From: an archaeon
Lineage (GTDB): Archaea; Thermoproteota; Thermoprotei_A; Marsarchaeales; Marsarchaeaceae
Assembly: GCA_902812505.1 (NCBI GenBank)
Contig: CADDZQ010000010.1
Location: forward strand, 1 to 33,853
DNA length: 33,853 nt
Direction: 5' to 3'
The notes under the pieces are model-generated. The model saw only the letters and a list, made by a program, of their open reading frames with translations. It had not been told where the DNA came from and searched no databases. Each line of letters begins with the position of its first letter. Within the stretch, counting starts at the first letter, position 1. Shown in pieces: positions 23,173-29,692 of this stretch. The position numbers and the translations under genes were made by a program.

Positions 23173-23538
23173 CTATCTAACACGTGTTCTGAGAGCTCTT
23201 TCCCTTAGGGGGCATGTGTGTGAATACTGTGCACATCTTTGAATTTCGAACTGCATGAGTTTCCTATGCATCACCCTGCATTCTCCGTCACCGAAGAATT
23301 CACAGTCAACCTCTATATTCAATGATGGTTGCTCCTGTGATGTGTATGATTCCATCTTGTGCTCAACCACTTCTTCTGAGGGAGCCCTGTCTGAATTCGC
23401 GGCGAATATTGAACACGATTTATACTCATACATACATCTCTGCCGACTGGTGTACAGTTTAGCGAGGCGTAGGTCTTTAACGGCACTACACATGTCCATT
23501 TTATAGAAAGGGCAGGGCAAAGCGTAGTCTTTATGCAC
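23173..23538 (-). CDS. Small eight-cysteine protein of unknown function, downstream of herA
   Basis: I do not recognise a family. It is 121 residues with a GTG start at 23538, overlapping the herA stop by eight bases, so it is the last gene of the nurA-herA unit. Cysteines 9, 17, 35 and 42 and cysteines 79, 87, 102 and 109 form two similar modules: C-x7-C-x17-C-x6-C and C-x7-C-x14-C-x6-C. Both begin 'C-x-F-aromatic' (CPFYKMDMC; CEFFGDGEC) and end with (Q)RC-x6-C. A polar linker of about 35 residues joins them. The pattern suggests an internal duplication and metal binding (zinc or Fe-S). A role with HerA/NurA is inferred only from position. Confidence 0.75.
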   Translation of the reverse strand: MHKDYALPCPFYKMDMCSAVKDLRLAKLYTSRQRCMYEYKSCSIFAANSDRAPSEEVVEHKMESYTSQEQPSLNIEVDCEFFGDGECRVMHRKLMQFEIQRCAQYSHTCPLRERALRTRVR

Positions 23539-25321
23539 TCAGCTTTTTTAATGTTTCTATAACGGTTTCCTCATTATTCGGTGTCCTGATGAACATGGGC
23601 ATGTTTCTCACACCGGTGGCGCTATAGCTGGAAAGAAGCCACTCTCCACTCTGCAACTCAAGCGTCTTATCTACAATGGTTGGGTCCACCGCGAATTGGT
23701 CGCTTATAGTTGTGCGGTCATAAGGTCGTGGGAGGGTTCCGACGAAATACGTATGAATCTGCTGCAACACGTTGGTATTCAGATAGGCAAGCCTCTGGGT
23801 TGCTATGAGCCCACCCAAGCCGTACTTTCTACCCTGACGTAGGAGTTGCTCGATGGCGTACGAGGAGTACCTTGTACCATCATCATCTCGCGCTTCTTTG
23901 GGTATCAACTCTTGTGCCTCATCGAACACGAAGAACACTGGTGGGTCCTTTCTAAACCTTGATTTCCTGAATTGCAAAACACGTGTGCACACATTAGCGG
24001 CGAACCTCCTGAGCCTCGAGACATCTGTGAAGGAGACAACTACTAAGCGTACACCTGCGGCGTCATTGAGTAGATTGACGAGCTGGCTATCAGAAAACCC
24101 ATCCCAGTAGGCTTCTCTGTCTGGTTGGCGGTTCACTGAATCAGCGATTACTCGCATGTCGGTCATTAGGTTCTGCATTGGCTTCTGGCTGAGGTCGACG
24201 TTAAGACCCTGTATAAACTCACTCAACTCTGCACCAACAGGGCTTTCCCACTCTAAGCTTCGCTGTTTTAGGAACGAGCTAAGCTGGGCGAGCACACCTA
24301 TGAGCAACACTTTAAGGGTGGCATTTTTCTTATCAGCATAATAGTCTATCTTCTCACTTATCATCTCGGCAACATCGTTGTAGGTCACCTTTGTCTCGAG
24401 ATGGCGTGCATAAAGCTTGTGTTCGGCTACCTTAGAAACCCTTTTTCTCCGAATGAGTGCATCGGCGAACGTGTTTACCGAGGCGGCAACCTCCCCCATG
24501 AATCCTTTGGGTAGAGTGAATCTCGAAGAGAGTTGGTCTGCGCTTAAAACCTCTTCCTCGATGAGCAAAAGCGAGCCGTAGGTTTCTGACAGCATAATGT
24601 CAGCTAGATTCACTGAGTATTCCCCCGCAACATCGAAAACCACAATTTTAGTGGTGGGTGTACTATTTATCACCGTTCTTATTAGGTGGGAAACAAGGTT
24701 GGATTTACCACCCCCCGTGTACGCGAAAACCCCCACGTGATAGCTGGTGAGAGCATAGGCATCCACCTTGACGTTGACCCCTTCATGTGAAATCAGTTTT
24801 GCAATAGGCGGGGATTCCGTGGGTAGCCCATTGTTAATAAGACGGGATATGGAGCTCTCGGTTAAGAAGCTCACTTCGCCACCGAGCAGTGGGTAACTCC
24901 ACCCTCGCTCAAAACTGTACTCTGAGCCGTCAACAATTAGGTCGTAGTTAATAGGGTTCCCTGTGAATTGTATGTAAGCGGCTTTGGAACCCTTTACCCA
25001 CTCGTATCGAACCTTCTCGAAGACCTCCCTCCTTATCTCAGGCAACGTGTCCGCTGTTATAGCAGCAGCTCCAAAATGAACGGGCCTGAAACCAACTAAT
25101 TCAAAAAGTGTGTATCTCTGCTTAGAATCAGATCTAAAATTGGGCACAGCGAATATCATTCCGGGCAGCAACCTACGCATCACTTGGATGTTATATGTGG
25201 CAGTGCAAACCCCTATATAGTGTGAGGATGTGTAACGCTCGAACTCAACAATCGAGTTATCAAGCCTTTCAAGACGGGCATCAAGCGCCCCATCAAAGTC
25301 TGTTAACGCGTCTGTTCCCAA
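23531..25321 (-). CDS. herA: HerA-type DNA translocase/helicase ATPase
   Basis: This hexameric FtsK/HerA-family ATPase drives DNA through the NurA nuclease during end resection for recombination. It is 596 residues. An N-terminal HAS-barrel-like region precedes a Walker A loop at about 199-207 (FAYTGGGKS). KIVVFDVAGEYSVNLAD and the Walker B FFVFDEAQELIP follow, then GGLIATQRLAYLN, a sensor-like segment. The start overlaps the nurA end by 19 bases, and the Cys-rich gene overlaps the end. The operon order nurA-herA is common in archaea, where they often adjoin mre11-rad50; those are absent here. Confidence 0.92.
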   Translation of the reverse strand: MGTDALTDFDGALDARLERLDNSIVEFERYTSSHYIGVCTATYNIQVMRRLLPGMIFAVPNFRSDSKQRYTLFELVGFRPVHFGAAAITADTLPEIRREVFEKVRYEWVKGSKAAYIQFTGNPINYDLIVDGSEYSFERGWSYPLLGGEVSFLTESSISRLINNGLPTESPPIAKLISHEGVNVKVDAYALTSYHVGVFAYTGGGKSNLVSHLIRTVINSTPTTKIVVFDVAGEYSVNLADIMLSETYGSLLLIEEEVLSADQLSSRFTLPKGFMGEVAASVNTFADALIRRKRVSKVAEHKLYARHLETKVTYNDVAEMISEKIDYYADKKNATLKVLLIGVLAQLSSFLKQRSLEWESPVGAELSEFIQGLNVDLSQKPMQNLMTDMRVIADSVNRQPDREAYWDGFSDSQLVNLLNDAAGVRLVVVSFTDVSRLRRFAANVCTRVLQFRKSRFRKDPPVFFVFDEAQELIPKEARDDDGTRYSSYAIEQLLRQGRKYGLGGLIATQRLAYLNTNVLQQIHTYFVGTLPRPYDRTTISDQFAVDPTIVDKTLELQSGEWLLSSYSATGVRNMPMFIRTPNNEETVIETLKKLSA

Positions 25322-26904
25322 CTTCTTCTACCCCTCTCAAATTCACTTCTCTTCTGCCTGAAGGGTTTAATAATTGAAAGATACTCACGGTAGGCTGGAT
25401 CAGTGATCAGCAGTTTTTGATATCCTCTGACTATGCTTCTCAACCCGGACACAATGTGTTTAACGTACTTATCAACTTCGAAAAGCGGATATGTGTGACC
25501 CAGCGCCTCAGGTATAGAGCCTGTTGGCTGCGAAAGGGCTTGGAGCAGTCCTAGGGTGTACTCTTGGTCAGGGTCATCCGTCTCGGAATATGGATCAAAC
25601 ATATCGACTGCGTGTCTTTTCAATCTCTCGCACACAAAAACATCGGAGCGGACGCCTTCACTGACCATAAGCTGAACATAGAACCTAGAAAAAACACCTC
25701 GCATAGGGGGCTCATTATTCGTGGAGCTCAACTCCGAAAGAGGGTCATATTCAAGCGTGCTCCAAGGCTCGTTGATAAGAGTGGGCTCTTTAAGAGCCGA
25801 GTAAACCTCCAGTGCGAGCTTATCGGGTAAGATGAAGCCCCTGTTAGTAGGACTCATTTCCCTGAAGATTAGTTCCTGCAGGCTCGTGGATGTGCTATCC
25901 TTCGCAACACCAATCAGTAGTTTTCCCAAATATTTTGCTTTAAGTAAGATGCCAATGAGTGCATAGGCTCTAAGCAGGTTTATGTCATCCAAACCAAGCG
26001 GTCTATCTAGGATCACCAGAGGGTGAGAGCCTCTGTAGAGTGTAATGTTCTGTTTTATCAAATTAAGGGTTGCCGTCAGCCTATCCCAGCTTTTCATCGC
26101 ATCCTGAGATAGCGTTAACGTGTGGGTATCCAGCTGTATTTTATCCGGGTAAGCCGCAGCAAAAGCTTGGAGCTGCCTAACACAATTCACATCTAAGCCA
26201 TCCAGAACAGCTGTTCCACCATTCCTTTCAGCGCTGAATATCAACGCGAATGGGTTTAGAGGCCTCACGGCTAGTAAATCTAAACCCCTGTACAGGTTTA
26301 TTAACAAATCATACTCATCAAGCCCACCCCACGCCGTCTTTAAGCCATTGAGGCTTGTCTTTTTGTACAGTTTTTCGTTAATGGACGTGCTTACAGATGT
26401 CTTATAGTCCATAGAGAGGGAGCCATCTGCTAGCACAATGTCCGCGATACTCATGGTATCGGCGACAGTTAGAAACTCCAAAAGCTTCATGAGGTTTGAG
26501 GCCAAGTTTACAAAAGGCGAAGAGCTATCAGAGGATTCAGCGTCTGCTTGATGGGCTAAGACAGGCAGGATGAATGAGTACTCAACACCTTGCTCAGGCC
26601 ACTTTTCAACCCAAACCGAGTCGGATACAACCATTTCGTACATGAGCGAAGCAGCTACAACGCTGATAAAAACGGTGTCGCCGAAGACATCAACACTGCA
26701 ACTACCATCAACCGCTCCAAGCGTAACACTTGGTTTATCCATCAAACTTCGTAGTCTATCAGGTCTATAGCTACCTATTTTGCGAATTACTTTTCGTCCA
26801 CCCACCACTACGTTGAATTGTGTGTTGTTGGCCTGCTTTATCGACTCTGTAATAAGTGTTAGAGTCGAGGCTTTGAGTCGTTCGAACTCTCGTTCATAGT
26901 CCAC
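25303..26904 (-). CDS. nurA: NurA-type 5'-3' nuclease
   Basis: This is the nuclease partner of HerA in DNA end processing. It is 533 residues, longer than the roughly 340-450 often seen in archaea. VTLGAVDGSCSVDVFGD near 81-97 contains the first catalytic Asp of the NurA domain. DIVLADGSLSMDYK and VILDRPLGLDDINLLRAYAL carry further acidic residues. EYTLGLLQALSQPTGSIPEAL and HTYPLFEVDKYV near the end are NurA-like. The start is GTG at 26904, only three bases after the tnpB stop. GGGGAG inside the tnpB end is a possible ribosome-binding site. The family call rests on these motifs plus adjacency to herA. Confidence 0.85.
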   Translation of the reverse strand: MDYEREFERLKASTLTLITESIKQANNTQFNVVVGGRKVIRKIGSYRPDRLRSLMDKPSVTLGAVDGSCSVDVFGDTVFISVVAASLMYEMVVSDSVWVEKWPEQGVEYSFILPVLAHQADAESSDSSSPFVNLASNLMKLLEFLTVADTMSIADIVLADGSLSMDYKTSVSTSINEKLYKKTSLNGLKTAWGGLDEYDLLINLYRGLDLLAVRPLNPFALIFSAERNGGTAVLDGLDVNCVRQLQAFAAAYPDKIQLDTHTLTLSQDAMKSWDRLTATLNLIKQNITLYRGSHPLVILDRPLGLDDINLLRAYALIGILLKAKYLGKLLIGVAKDSTSTSLQELIFREMSPTNRGFILPDKLALEVYSALKEPTLINEPWSTLEYDPLSELSSTNNEPPMRGVFSRFYVQLMVSEGVRSDVFVCERLKRHAVDMFDPYSETDDPDQEYTLGLLQALSQPTGSIPEALGHTYPLFEVDKYVKHIVSGLRSIVRGYQKLLITDPAYREYLSIIKPFRQKRSEFERGRRSWEQTR

Positions 26905-26907
26905 CTG

Positions 26908-28176
26908 TTAACACTCCCCAAATAGTGTATGGATGTGGACGATGCGAGCCACCCCGCCCTCACGCACGGAGCCTCCTGCCTCAGCGACCCATATCTGCCT
27001 GTACGGGTAGATTCCATACAAGCACGAAGTAGCAATCTCCACAGGCGTGAATTCGGACCGCACCAGCCCCACATTGACGAGACCTATTCTCCTTATGTTC
27101 TTTGAGGCATTATAATCCCTGTGTATGACCAGACCACATGTAGCACAGCGGTACACACGCTCCGAGAGCTTCATGTCATGTTTCACGCTTTCACAGTTAG
27201 CGCACAGCTTGGAGGACGGATCAAACCCACCAATTAGGATAATATTCTCCCCATATTTGTGAGCCTTCCACTCAAGCCTCCGCCTGAACGCATAGAATGA
27301 GGCATCCGCAAGACCCTTTGAGACGTGTTGGTTCTGCACCATCCCCCGGACGTTGATGTCCTCCAAGACTATGGTGTCGTGCCGCTTGGCTATCGCGGTC
27401 GACACCTTATCCAAGAAATCTTCATGCATGCTACTGAGCTTCCTGTATTTCTTCTGCAATTTCAATATAGGGTTCCTCCTCTTGTTTGACCCTTTTCGCC
27501 TCTTTAATAGTTGCCTCTGAAGCCGCCTTATCCTATTCTCAACCCTCTCCATGAATCTCGGATTCCCTATGATTGTTCCATCCGACAGTGTAGCGAACTT
27601 CTCCACACCCAAGTCGATACCAACCGAATTCCCGACGGATATTGACACCTTCTCTGGTAGTTGCTCTCCGGTTTCTTTTATTATCAAACAGTAATAGTCC
27701 CCCACATCCTTTGTTATAACAATGTGATTGACCTTCTTGACCCTGCATAGTTTGCCCTCGGAACACCTGAAGTATATACTCTCAGAGAAATTTGGGAAGC
27801 ACACGCTATTCCCCTCTATCATTATGTGCTGTGGAACCGCGAAGCAATCATTCTTACCACTCCTCTTGAATTTTGGGTGCTCCGCGTAACCGTGGAAGAG
27901 GTTTTTGAATGCGCTATCCAAGAAGCGCACAGACATCTGTAGTGACTGGGAATTGATTTCGTACAGCAATGGGTACTCCTTTTTCAGCTCAATCAGCATA
28001 CTCTGTGTACCAAAATAATTTAGGGATGATTTCTCCGCACCCCTATTCGCTATGTAGTATTCATCCCTCTTCGACAAGAAGTAATTGGAGACAAACCTGC
28101 AACCACCAAAGTGCTTCTCCAACAAAACCTGCTGTCTCTTATCAGGATAGAGCTTCACCTTGGTGGATGTCAGCAT
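26908..28176 (-). CDS. tnpB: IS605-family TnpB RNA-guided nuclease (OrfB), apparently intact
   Basis: It is 422 residues. TnpB proteins are transposon-encoded RNA-guided nucleases related to Cas12. The N-terminal YPDKRQQVLLEKHFGGCRFV is the usual helix-turn-helix start. RuvC catalytic residues are present: Asp188 in GIDLGVEKF, Glu272 in VLEDINVRG and Asp354 in HRDYNASKNI. The zinc finger has Cys325, Cys328, Cys344 and Cys347. The tail contains FTPVE and WVAEAGGSVREGG, as in relatives. No tnpA lies beside it. The stop is three bases from nurA, leaving no space for a standard right end with the omega RNA. The start is supported by a TATA box at 28202-28209. Confidence 0.93.
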   Translation of the reverse strand: MLTSTKVKLYPDKRQQVLLEKHFGGCRFVSNYFLSKRDEYYIANRGAEKSSLNYFGTQSMLIELKKEYPLLYEINSQSLQMSVRFLDSAFKNLFHGYAEHPKFKRSGKNDCFAVPQHIMIEGNSVCFPNFSESIYFRCSEGKLCRVKKVNHIVITKDVGDYYCLIIKETGEQLPEKVSISVGNSVGIDLGVEKFATLSDGTIIGNPRFMERVENRIRRLQRQLLKRRKGSNKRRNPILKLQKKYRKLSSMHEDFLDKVSTAIAKRHDTIVLEDINVRGMVQNQHVSKGLADASFYAFRRRLEWKAHKYGENIILIGGFDPSSKLCANCESVKHDMKLSERVYRCATCGLVIHRDYNASKNIRRIGLVNVGLVRSEFTPVEIATSCLYGIYPYRQIWVAEAGGSVREGGVARIVHIHTLFGEC

Positions 28177-28201: not shown

Positions 28202-28209
28202 TTTATAAA
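28202..28209 (-). promoter_or_regulatory. TATA box of tnpB
   Basis: TTTATAAA is centred about 29 bases upstream of the ATG at 28176, an ideal leaderless promoter. It may also serve nurA, herA and the Cys-rich gene. Confidence 0.5.
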
Positions 28210-28218
28210 CCATTCTGA

Positions 28219-28272
28219 GGGAAGAGGGGGTGTATTCCCGCCCTCTCCCTGATCGGTAGGAGCCTTCCGCCC
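28219..28272 (-). repeat. Second copy of a tnpB 3'-end-like segment with a hairpin, upstream of tnpB
   Basis: The minus strand reads GGCGGAAGGCTCC, a spacer, then GAGGGCGGG. The tnpB tail (26953-26980) reads GGCAGGAGGCTCC, a spacer, then GAGGGCGGG in the same order and orientation. GGGAAGAGGG (28219-28228) pairs with CCCTCTCCC (28241-28249) with one bulge. It may be the right end of a lost IS605 copy or a structured left-end element. Confidence 0.4.
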
Positions 28273-28362
28273 CCAAACCCCCACAAAATCCAAAATGATT
28301 AGGTGTAGGCATGCATGTGGGAGTCAGCTGGGTGTTTGTTGGAAGGTTTTTCGATGTTTCTC

Positions 28363-28375
28363 AAAGTTAATTAAT
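28363..28375 (+). promoter_or_regulatory. TATA-like box of pgk
   Basis: AAAGTTAATTAAT is centred about 27 bases before the GTG at 28397. It supports that start over the longer open frame from 28295. Confidence 0.45.
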
Positions 28376-28396
28376 GGCTATAGAGTGGGATTCTTG

Positions 28397-29692
28397 GTGT
28401 TAAGCTTGTCGGGCAAGAAGCTAAGCGTTCCCGAGTATGTTGGCATGGATGAAATGAGGTTTGGGGGCTTGGTGACTCTGCTTCGAGTCGACATTAATTC
28501 CCCCATTGACCCTTTAACAGGCAAAATAATTGACTACACGCGTATAAAGTCCCATATACCCACCATCAAGAGTCTTATTGACCAAGGAGCGAAGACGGTT
28601 CTCCTCGCTCACCAAGGCCAAAGGGGGTCACAAGACTTCGTCTCACTGAGAACTCATAGTGAGATACTATCAAGCATCTTAGGCACCGAGGTCAAGTTTG
28701 TCCCGGAGGTTTATGGGAAGCACGTGGATGAGGAATTGCTTCAACTCAAAGAGGGAGAGGTGCTTATGCTTGAGAACACACGTTTTATCGATGATGAGAC
28801 ACGTGAGGTATCAGACGAGGAGCATTCTAAATCACCATTCGTGAGAAGCCTTTCGTCGAGGGCGTCAGCTTATATCAACGACGCCTTCGCCGCAGCACAC
28901 AGAAACCACGCCTCCCTAGTAGGGTTTCCCTATATTCTACCAGCCTTCGCGGGCGAGCTCATGGAAGCCGAGCTCAACGCCCTGAACAGGGTTGTGGGTG
29001 GTAACCTACGTCCAACCGTCTTTCTAATAGGTGGAGGAAAAGTTGCTGATTCTATAAAGATAATCCTGAGGATACTAGAATCAAACTCGGCTGACAAGGT
29101 GGTGGTCACAGGCCTTGTTGGAAACATCTTCCTACTCGCTTCGGGGGCCAGATTAGGGAAAAAGATGAGTGCTTATATAGCTGAGAAAGGTCTCGAAGAC
29201 GCGCTTATAACCGCGCGTAAGATCCTCGCCGAATACAGCTCTAAGGTCGTGTTACCCGTTGACATCGCTGTTGAGAGGTCTGGAAAAAGGGTTGAGGTGG
29301 ATTTACACAGCGTTGCCGAAGACGACAGCGTTATGGATATCGGCGAAAGAACCATCAGCGTAGTACGCGACGAGATAAGTGGGTTCAGAACAGCGTTCAT
29401 GAGGGGGCCGGCAGGTGTAGTGGAGAAGCCTGGATTTGAGGTAGGCACATCCAAACTACTCCAGCTATTGGCCGACCTTAAAATTTACACGGTAATAGGT
29501 GGGGGGCACACGAGAATCATGGCTGAGAAGATGGGTCTGGTGGAAAAACTGGGATATGCGAGCACCGGAGGTGGAGCACTCTTGACGTTCCTAAGCGGCG
29601 AACCACTGCCAGCCCTCATAGCGCTAAGTCAGGCAGCGCAGCGTACAAGGCTATTTGTGAGGAAACTCGACGCACGCGTCGAGAGGCCATAG
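28397..29692 (+). CDS. pgk: Phosphoglycerate kinase
   Basis: It interconverts 1,3-bisphosphoglycerate and 3-phosphoglycerate with ADP/ATP in glycolysis/gluconeogenesis. It is about 431 residues from the GTG at 28397. The frame is open upstream to 28295, but that part is unlike the family and spans a TATA box. LLRVDINSPID is the N-terminal signature. VLLAHQGQRGS, EVLMLENTRF, AYINDAFAAAHRNHASLVGF and FLIGGGKVADSI follow. FMRGPAGVVEKPGFEVGT and VIGGGHTRIMAEKMG form the nucleotide site. The ending EYAST-like STGGGALLTFLSGEPLPAL is typical. A sugar nucleotidyltransferase follows after two bases. Confidence 0.93.
   Translation: MLSLSGKKLSVPEYVGMDEMRFGGLVTLLRVDINSPIDPLTGKIIDYTRIKSHIPTIKSLIDQGAKTVLLAHQGQRGSQDFVSLRTHSEILSSILGTEVKFVPEVYGKHVDEELLQLKEGEVLMLENTRFIDDETREVSDEEHSKSPFVRSLSSRASAYINDAFAAAHRNHASLVGFPYILPAFAGELMEAELNALNRVVGGNLRPTVFLIGGGKVADSIKIILRILESNSADKVVVTGLVGNIFLLASGARLGKKMSAYIAEKGLEDALITARKILAEYSSKVVLPVDIAVERSGKRVEVDLHSVAEDDSVMDIGERTISVVRDEISGFRTAFMRGPAGVVEKPGFEVGTSKLLQLLADLKIYTVIGGGHTRIMAEKMGLVEKLGYASTGGGALLTFLSGEPLPALIALSQAAQRTRLFVRKLDARVERP

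What the first reader, a model, noticed from the sequence alone, without database searches (positions are those of the whole stretch)
26893..28176. Intact TnpB butts directly onto nurA with no transposon right end
The tnpB stop (26908-26910) and the nurA GTG (26904) are separated by three bases, and GGGGAG inside tnpB may be the nurA ribosome-binding site. All RuvC and zinc-finger residues look present. IS605 elements normally carry a right end with the omega RNA beyond tnpB, and there is no room for one here. Inference: the gene may have lost mobility and been captured as the first gene of the nurA-herA operon under its own TATA promoter, linking an RNA-guided nuclease to DNA end resection. 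Alternatively the omega RNA lies within the last ~150 bases of tnpB.
Basis: partly seen in the sequence, partly recalled or inferred. Interest (0 to 1): 0.68.

Follow-up and report, generated by a model that had tools for sequence, protein, structure and literature searches.

The report
Old tnpB insertion upstream of nurA
A small, old jumping-gene remnant carrying an RNA-guided nuclease gene (tnpB) sits in front of a DNA-repair operon in a hot-spring archaeon; its right end and guide RNA are hidden inside the tnpB gene, and a sister species has lost most of that gene, so it is an ordinary insertion and not a conserved repair partner.

Summary
The geometry is right: tnpB stop 26908-26910, nurA GTG 26902-26904, three bases between, intact nuclease. 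The key claim, no right end and no room for an omega RNA, is wrong. In this element family the right end overlaps the tnpB 3' end. Here the scaffold stem (27070-27055; strong covariation across 16 sequences), the conserved core GAATTCACGCCTGTGGAG (27054-27037) and the terminal hairpin (26976-26944) lie inside the ORF, which overruns the right end and stops in host DNA. Bases from 26943 on, the old nurA leader, would be the guide. A degraded IS605-type left end lies at about 28288-28224. The sister species (Marsarchaeota G2 ECH_B_1) has the same insertion with 314 internal codons deleted in frame: no RuvC, no scaffold stem. Its remnant loses family-typical residues faster (18 sites vs 5, p=0.011). 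Two same-family genomes have pgk and nurA-herA adjacent without tnpB. So a solo-tnpB IS200/IS605 element inserted about 40 bp upstream of nurA in the genus ancestor; tnpB stayed intact, probably under selection, in one species and collapsed in the other. A functional TnpB-NurA-HerA partnership is not supported. Promoter takeover of nurA is plausible but untested.

The parts
28270..28288 (-). Start of the left end (LE), TTTTGTGGGGGTTTGGGGG; the sister species has TTTTAACTTTGTGGGTG... here, so the TTTAA motif has been lost in this genome
   Evidence: LE consensus TTTAAC...GGGGGTTAAGGGGGCGGAAG in elements of other genomes; pair alignment
28224..28288 (-). Whole left-end region with imperfect palindromes, GGCGGAAGGCTCC...GGGAATACACCCCC; inner limit approximate
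28202..28209 (-). TATA box TTTATAAA, element-borne promoter of tnpB (leaderless spacing, 25 nt to ATG)
   Evidence: sequence, conserved in G001
26908..28176 (-). tnpB ORF, 422 aa, intact RuvC and zinc finger; the last 11 codons and the stop are host DNA beyond the right end
27055..27070 (-). omega-RNA scaffold stem GGGGCTGGTGCGGTCC (5-bp stem with compensatory changes in relatives)
27037..27054 (-). conserved omega-RNA core GAATTCACGCCTGTGGAG (also encodes EFTPVE)
   Evidence: 20-21 bp exact matches in distant genomes
26944..26976 (-). right-end terminal hairpin GGAGGCTCCGTGCGTGAGGGCGGGGTGGCTCGC (canonical ...GGGCGGGGTAGTTCAC); inferred last base of the element 26944
26924..26943 (-). predicted guide (host nurA leader) ATCGTCCACATCCATACACT; single match in the genome
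   Evidence: position next to RE
26914..26919 (-). GGGGAG, likely nurA ribosome-binding site, in host DNA beyond the right end
25303..26904 (-). nurA, GTG start
   Evidence: Pfam NurA, homologue alignment
23531..25321 (-). herA, TTG start, overlaps nurA end
   Evidence: Pfam HerA central domain

Best explanation
This is an old solo-tnpB element of the IS200/IS605 family, about 1,345 bp (28288 to 26944). It inserted in the intergenic region between the divergent pgk and nurA-herA genes, about 40 bp upstream of the nurA start, before the two known Marsarchaeota G2 genomes of this genus split. As in its relatives, the right end and omega-RNA scaffold overlap the 3' end of tnpB; the ORF runs through the right end and stops by chance in the host nurA leader. 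The predicted omega RNA carries the nurA leader as guide, so TnpB would cut the empty site, not the filled one, which favours keeping the insertion (inferred from known TnpB biology). In this genome the ORF has stayed open, probably under selection; in the sister species it collapsed by an in-frame internal deletion between CAGAT repeats. nurA now lies downstream of the element's TATA promoter and may be co-transcribed with it (inferred).
For: Same site in G001 with a deleted tnpB, N 81 aa plus C 27 aa, identical 3-nt spacing. Same gene order without tnpB in G004 and G005. Right-end motif at the tnpB stop in siblings, and ORFs overrunning it in L017 and L025. Scaffold stem: 92.5% of cells paired, 33 compensatory cells, 0 of 500 shuffles as high. 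Left-end consensus with TTTAAC in siblings and in G001. TTTAA/TTTAT motifs and omega RNA at the 3' end of tnpB in Sulfolobus (PMC10640517); reRNA matching the tnpB 3' end plus RE in ISDra2 (PMC8612924). Neutral simulation: the 422-codon ORF stays open in 0.2% of runs at 0.2 substitutions/site. Relative-rate count 18 vs 5, p=0.011.
Against: The right-end terminus is CTCGC, not TTCAC (one relative, L028, also has CTCGC), and the hairpin has a G.G mismatch. The left-end boundary is inferred because the TTTAA motif is lost here. A fold of the whole 152-nt putative omega RNA is not significantly stable (z -1.54), and no Rfam family matches. Only two genomes carry the insertion, both metagenome assemblies.
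Confidence: 0.87

Rival explanations
1. tnpB was domesticated as a functional nuclease partner of NurA-HerA, co-expressed as the first operon gene and acting in DNA end processing.
For: Adjacent, same strand, 3-nt gap, conserved TATA box and SD; intact catalytic residues; ORF probably under constraint in this genome.
Against: Sister species lost RuvC, zinc finger and the scaffold stem but keeps nurA-herA; same-family genomes lack tnpB at this site; no TnpB match in eight other fetched nurA neighbourhoods; element ends are recognisable.
Confidence: 0.04
2. What was captured is the element's promoter and 5' leader, not the nuclease: nurA depends on the tnpB TATA box and is translated by coupling to the upstream ORF, so promoter, SD and frame are kept while the nuclease is dispensable. 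(Compatible with the best explanation; an addition to it rather than an alternative origin.)
For: TATA box, ATG, in-frame ORF, stop position and SD are kept in both species even after the 942-nt deletion, which was in frame. No run of T between the genes.
Against: In-frame deletion has a 1 in 3 chance; the 108-codon remnant would stay open by chance in 8-24% of neutral runs at 0.1-0.2 substitutions/site; nothing on transcript starts; nurA could have its own promoter in the 39-bp leader.
Confidence: 0.35
3. The adjacency is an assembly or annotation artefact.
For: Both genomes are fragmented metagenome assemblies.
Against: Two assemblies of different species show the same junction with flanks on both sides; ORFs and ends are coherent.
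Confidence: 0.02

Closest known systems
IS200/IS605 solo-tnpB elements of thermophilic archaea (Saccharolobus islandicus type, PMC10640517)
   Same: TnpB family, left-end palindrome with TTTAA-type motif, omega RNA at the tnpB 3' end, conserved right end
   Different: ORF overruns the right end into host DNA; right-end terminus CTCGC; TTTAA lost; no close copy elsewhere in the genome
ISDra2 TnpB and reRNA (PMC8612924)
   Same: RuvC triad and zinc finger; guide RNA comprises the tnpB 3' end, the RE and about 16 nt of flank
   Different: No tnpA here; 422 aa with a C-terminal tail that carries the RNA scaffold
TldR, TnpB-derived RNA-guided repressors (PMC13418256; abstract only, nuclease-dead status from own knowledge)
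   Same: TnpB-like protein next to a host gene
   Different: TldRs are nuclease-dead; here the RuvC motifs are intact and the guide is simply the flank

Membership tests
IS200/IS605 TnpB | TnpB protein domains (HTH_OrfB, OrfB_IS605, Cas12f1-like TNB) with RuvC D-E-D and CxxC pairs | tested here: met
   Pfam all over cut-off; NCBIfam guided_TnpB 258.9 bits vs cut-off 100
IS200/IS605 TnpB | omega-RNA scaffold at the tnpB 3' end | tested here: met
   covarying stem and core shared with relatives
IS200/IS605 element | palindromic right end at or near the tnpB stop | tested here: met
   26976-26944; 7 of 8 terminal pairs form, terminus variant CTCGC
IS200/IS605 element | left end preceded by a TTTAA-type target motif | tested here: inconclusive
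   present in the sister copy, lost by a 6-bp gap in this genome
IS200/IS605 element | Y1 transposase in cis or in trans | tested here: inconclusive
   none in cis; none in G000 (79% complete); two matches in G001
IS200/IS605 element | RNA-guided cleavage of the empty site | not testable with these tools
   needs biochemistry
Domesticated TnpB (host gene) | conserved as an intact gene at the same site across species | tested here: not met
   internally deleted in G001, absent in G004 and G005
TldR repressor | inactivated RuvC | tested here: not met
   D, E, D motifs present

The most novel reading that the evidence does not exclude
TnpB matures its omega RNA from a tnpB-nurA co-transcript, so that omega-RNA processing about 20 nt downstream of the right end also sets the 5' end of the nurA-herA mRNA just upstream of its ribosome-binding site. 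An RNA-guided nuclease would then tune expression of a DNA-resection operon, and the intact state in this genome would reflect that.
Probability: 0.07. Interest if true: 0.55.

Novelty: new member of a known kind. Interest (0 to 1): 0.22.

Why it matters
It shows a trap in reading tnpB loci: the right end and guide RNA can be wholly hidden inside the coding sequence, so a tnpB that abuts a host gene is not by itself evidence of capture. It also gives a neat natural pair: the same insertion kept intact in one species and reduced to an in-frame stub in its sister, next to an operon for DNA end resection.

Tried and rejected
The genome-contig scan with nurA found only three relatives, which gave names (G001 = Marsarchaeota G2 ECH_B_1, G002 = Marsarchaeota G1 BE_D, G004 = archaeon YP4.bin50) but no further congeners. 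Rfam had no match. Folding the whole putative omega RNA gave z -1.54, not significant, so I rely on covariation instead. A second genomic target of the guide was sought and not found in G000. No close full-length TnpB relative turned up in 398 genomes drawn from the phylum; best plasmid relative 39% identical. dN/dS of the shared 81 N-terminal codons (0.52, against 0.18 for nurA) is ambiguous alone because one copy is a remnant, hence the outgroup count. I first took TTTGT next to the GGGGG run as the target motif; the sister copy and siblings show TTTAAC a few bases further out, so that was dropped. A paper search for TnpB with NurA and HerA found nothing relevant.

Full report
Observation. 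The nurA start agrees with homologues. TnpB passes the Pfam and NCBIfam cut-offs, and the RuvC motifs GIDLG (186), LEDIN (271) and HRDYN (352) and both CxxC pairs are present. A TATA box, TTTATAAA (28209-28202), lies 25 nt before the tnpB ATG.

Where the right end is. In sibling elements of other archaeal genomes the tnpB stop codon is itself part of the right-end motif...GGGCGGGGTAGTTCAC, and the element ends five bases after it; in some (L017, L025) the ORF is out of register with that TAG and runs on into host DNA. The window does the same: terminal hairpin 26976-26944, GGAGGCTCCGTGCGTGAGGGCGGGGTGGCTCGC, then 11 more codons of host DNA and the TAA. Seven of eight terminal pairs form in this genome, five of eight in the sister species. 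One relative, L028, also ends in CTCGC.

The guide RNA. A DNA search with the last 186 bases gave 20-21 bp exact matches at GAATTCACGCCTGTGGAG in genomes whose TnpBs are otherwise distant. Just upstream of this core is a 5-bp stem that swaps G-C for C-G and others among relatives: 92.5% of cells paired, 33 with changes on both sides, none of 500 shuffles as high, and sliding the partner destroys it. In the window this stem is 27070-27055 and is within tnpB coding sequence. The omega RNA therefore overlaps the 3' end of tnpB, as described for Saccharolobus (PMC10640517) and ISDra2 (PMC8612924). The guide would begin at 26943 in the nurA leader; it has a single match in the genome. The fold of the whole RNA is not unusually stable.

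The left end. Siblings share TTTAAC...GGGGGTTAAGGGGGCGGAAGTCCCC. The sister copy has TTTTAACTTTGTGGGTGTTTAGGGGTGGAAG; the window has lost six bases including TTTAA. With no Y1 transposase found in this incomplete genome, the copy is probably immobile.

Comparative test. G001 (Marsarchaeota G2 ECH_B_1; named) has the same insertion, same flanks, same stop and spacing, but its tnpB lacks the stretch between two CAGAT repeats, leaving 108 codons in frame: the N-terminal 81 and the C-terminal 27. RuvC, zinc finger and the scaffold stem are gone, yet nurA-herA is intact. G004 and G005 of the same family have pgk and nurA-herA side by side with no tnpB. Among fetched nurA neighbourhoods of other genomes, no TnpB match was seen except in G001. 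The simplest history is one insertion after the split from the G004/G005 genus and before the split of the two species; loss in G004/G005 cannot be excluded formally but those intergenic regions show no element.

Selection. nurA dN/dS is 0.18; the shared tnpB N-terminal part 0.52, the tail 0.89. At positions where the two copies differ, outgroup TnpBs support the window residue at 18 sites and the G001 residue at 5 (p = 0.011). A neutral 422-codon ORF would stay open in 0.2% of simulations at 0.2 substitutions per site. The simplest reading: the window copy has been under constraint, the sister copy is a decaying remnant. The remnant's open frame alone is not significant (8-24% by chance).

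Mechanism. Shown: element ends, scaffold, same-site comparison. Inferred: TnpB with this RNA would cut alleles that lack the element, which keeps it in place; the element promoter may now drive nurA; TnpB processing of its own mRNA (shown for other TnpBs, PMC10278001) would release a nurA mRNA with its ribosome-binding site intact. None of these was tested.

Verdict. Ordinary kind of element in an eye-catching place.

Noticed in passing
23173-23538 (-): 121-aa cysteine-rich protein overlapping the 3' end of herA, with no Pfam match, conserved as the third gene of the nurA-herA operon in G001 (98%), G004 and G005 (55%) and G002 (48%); conserved cysteines in two groups suggest a metal or Fe-S binding protein tied to end resection.
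   Followed up: partly
28349-28408: Block of about 59 identical bases between this genome and G001 just upstream of the probable pgk start, far above the general divergence; possibly a shared promoter or leader.
   Followed up: no
L064, L065, L066, L071, L081, L095, L097, L110: Copies of the omega-RNA core and right end, apparently without an intact tnpB, are common in the relatives.
   Followed up: no
G000 contigs C6, C20, C22, C23, C26, C28, C33, C83: The other tnpB copies in this genome are mostly broken by stop codons; the nurA-linked copy is the best preserved match.
   Followed up: no
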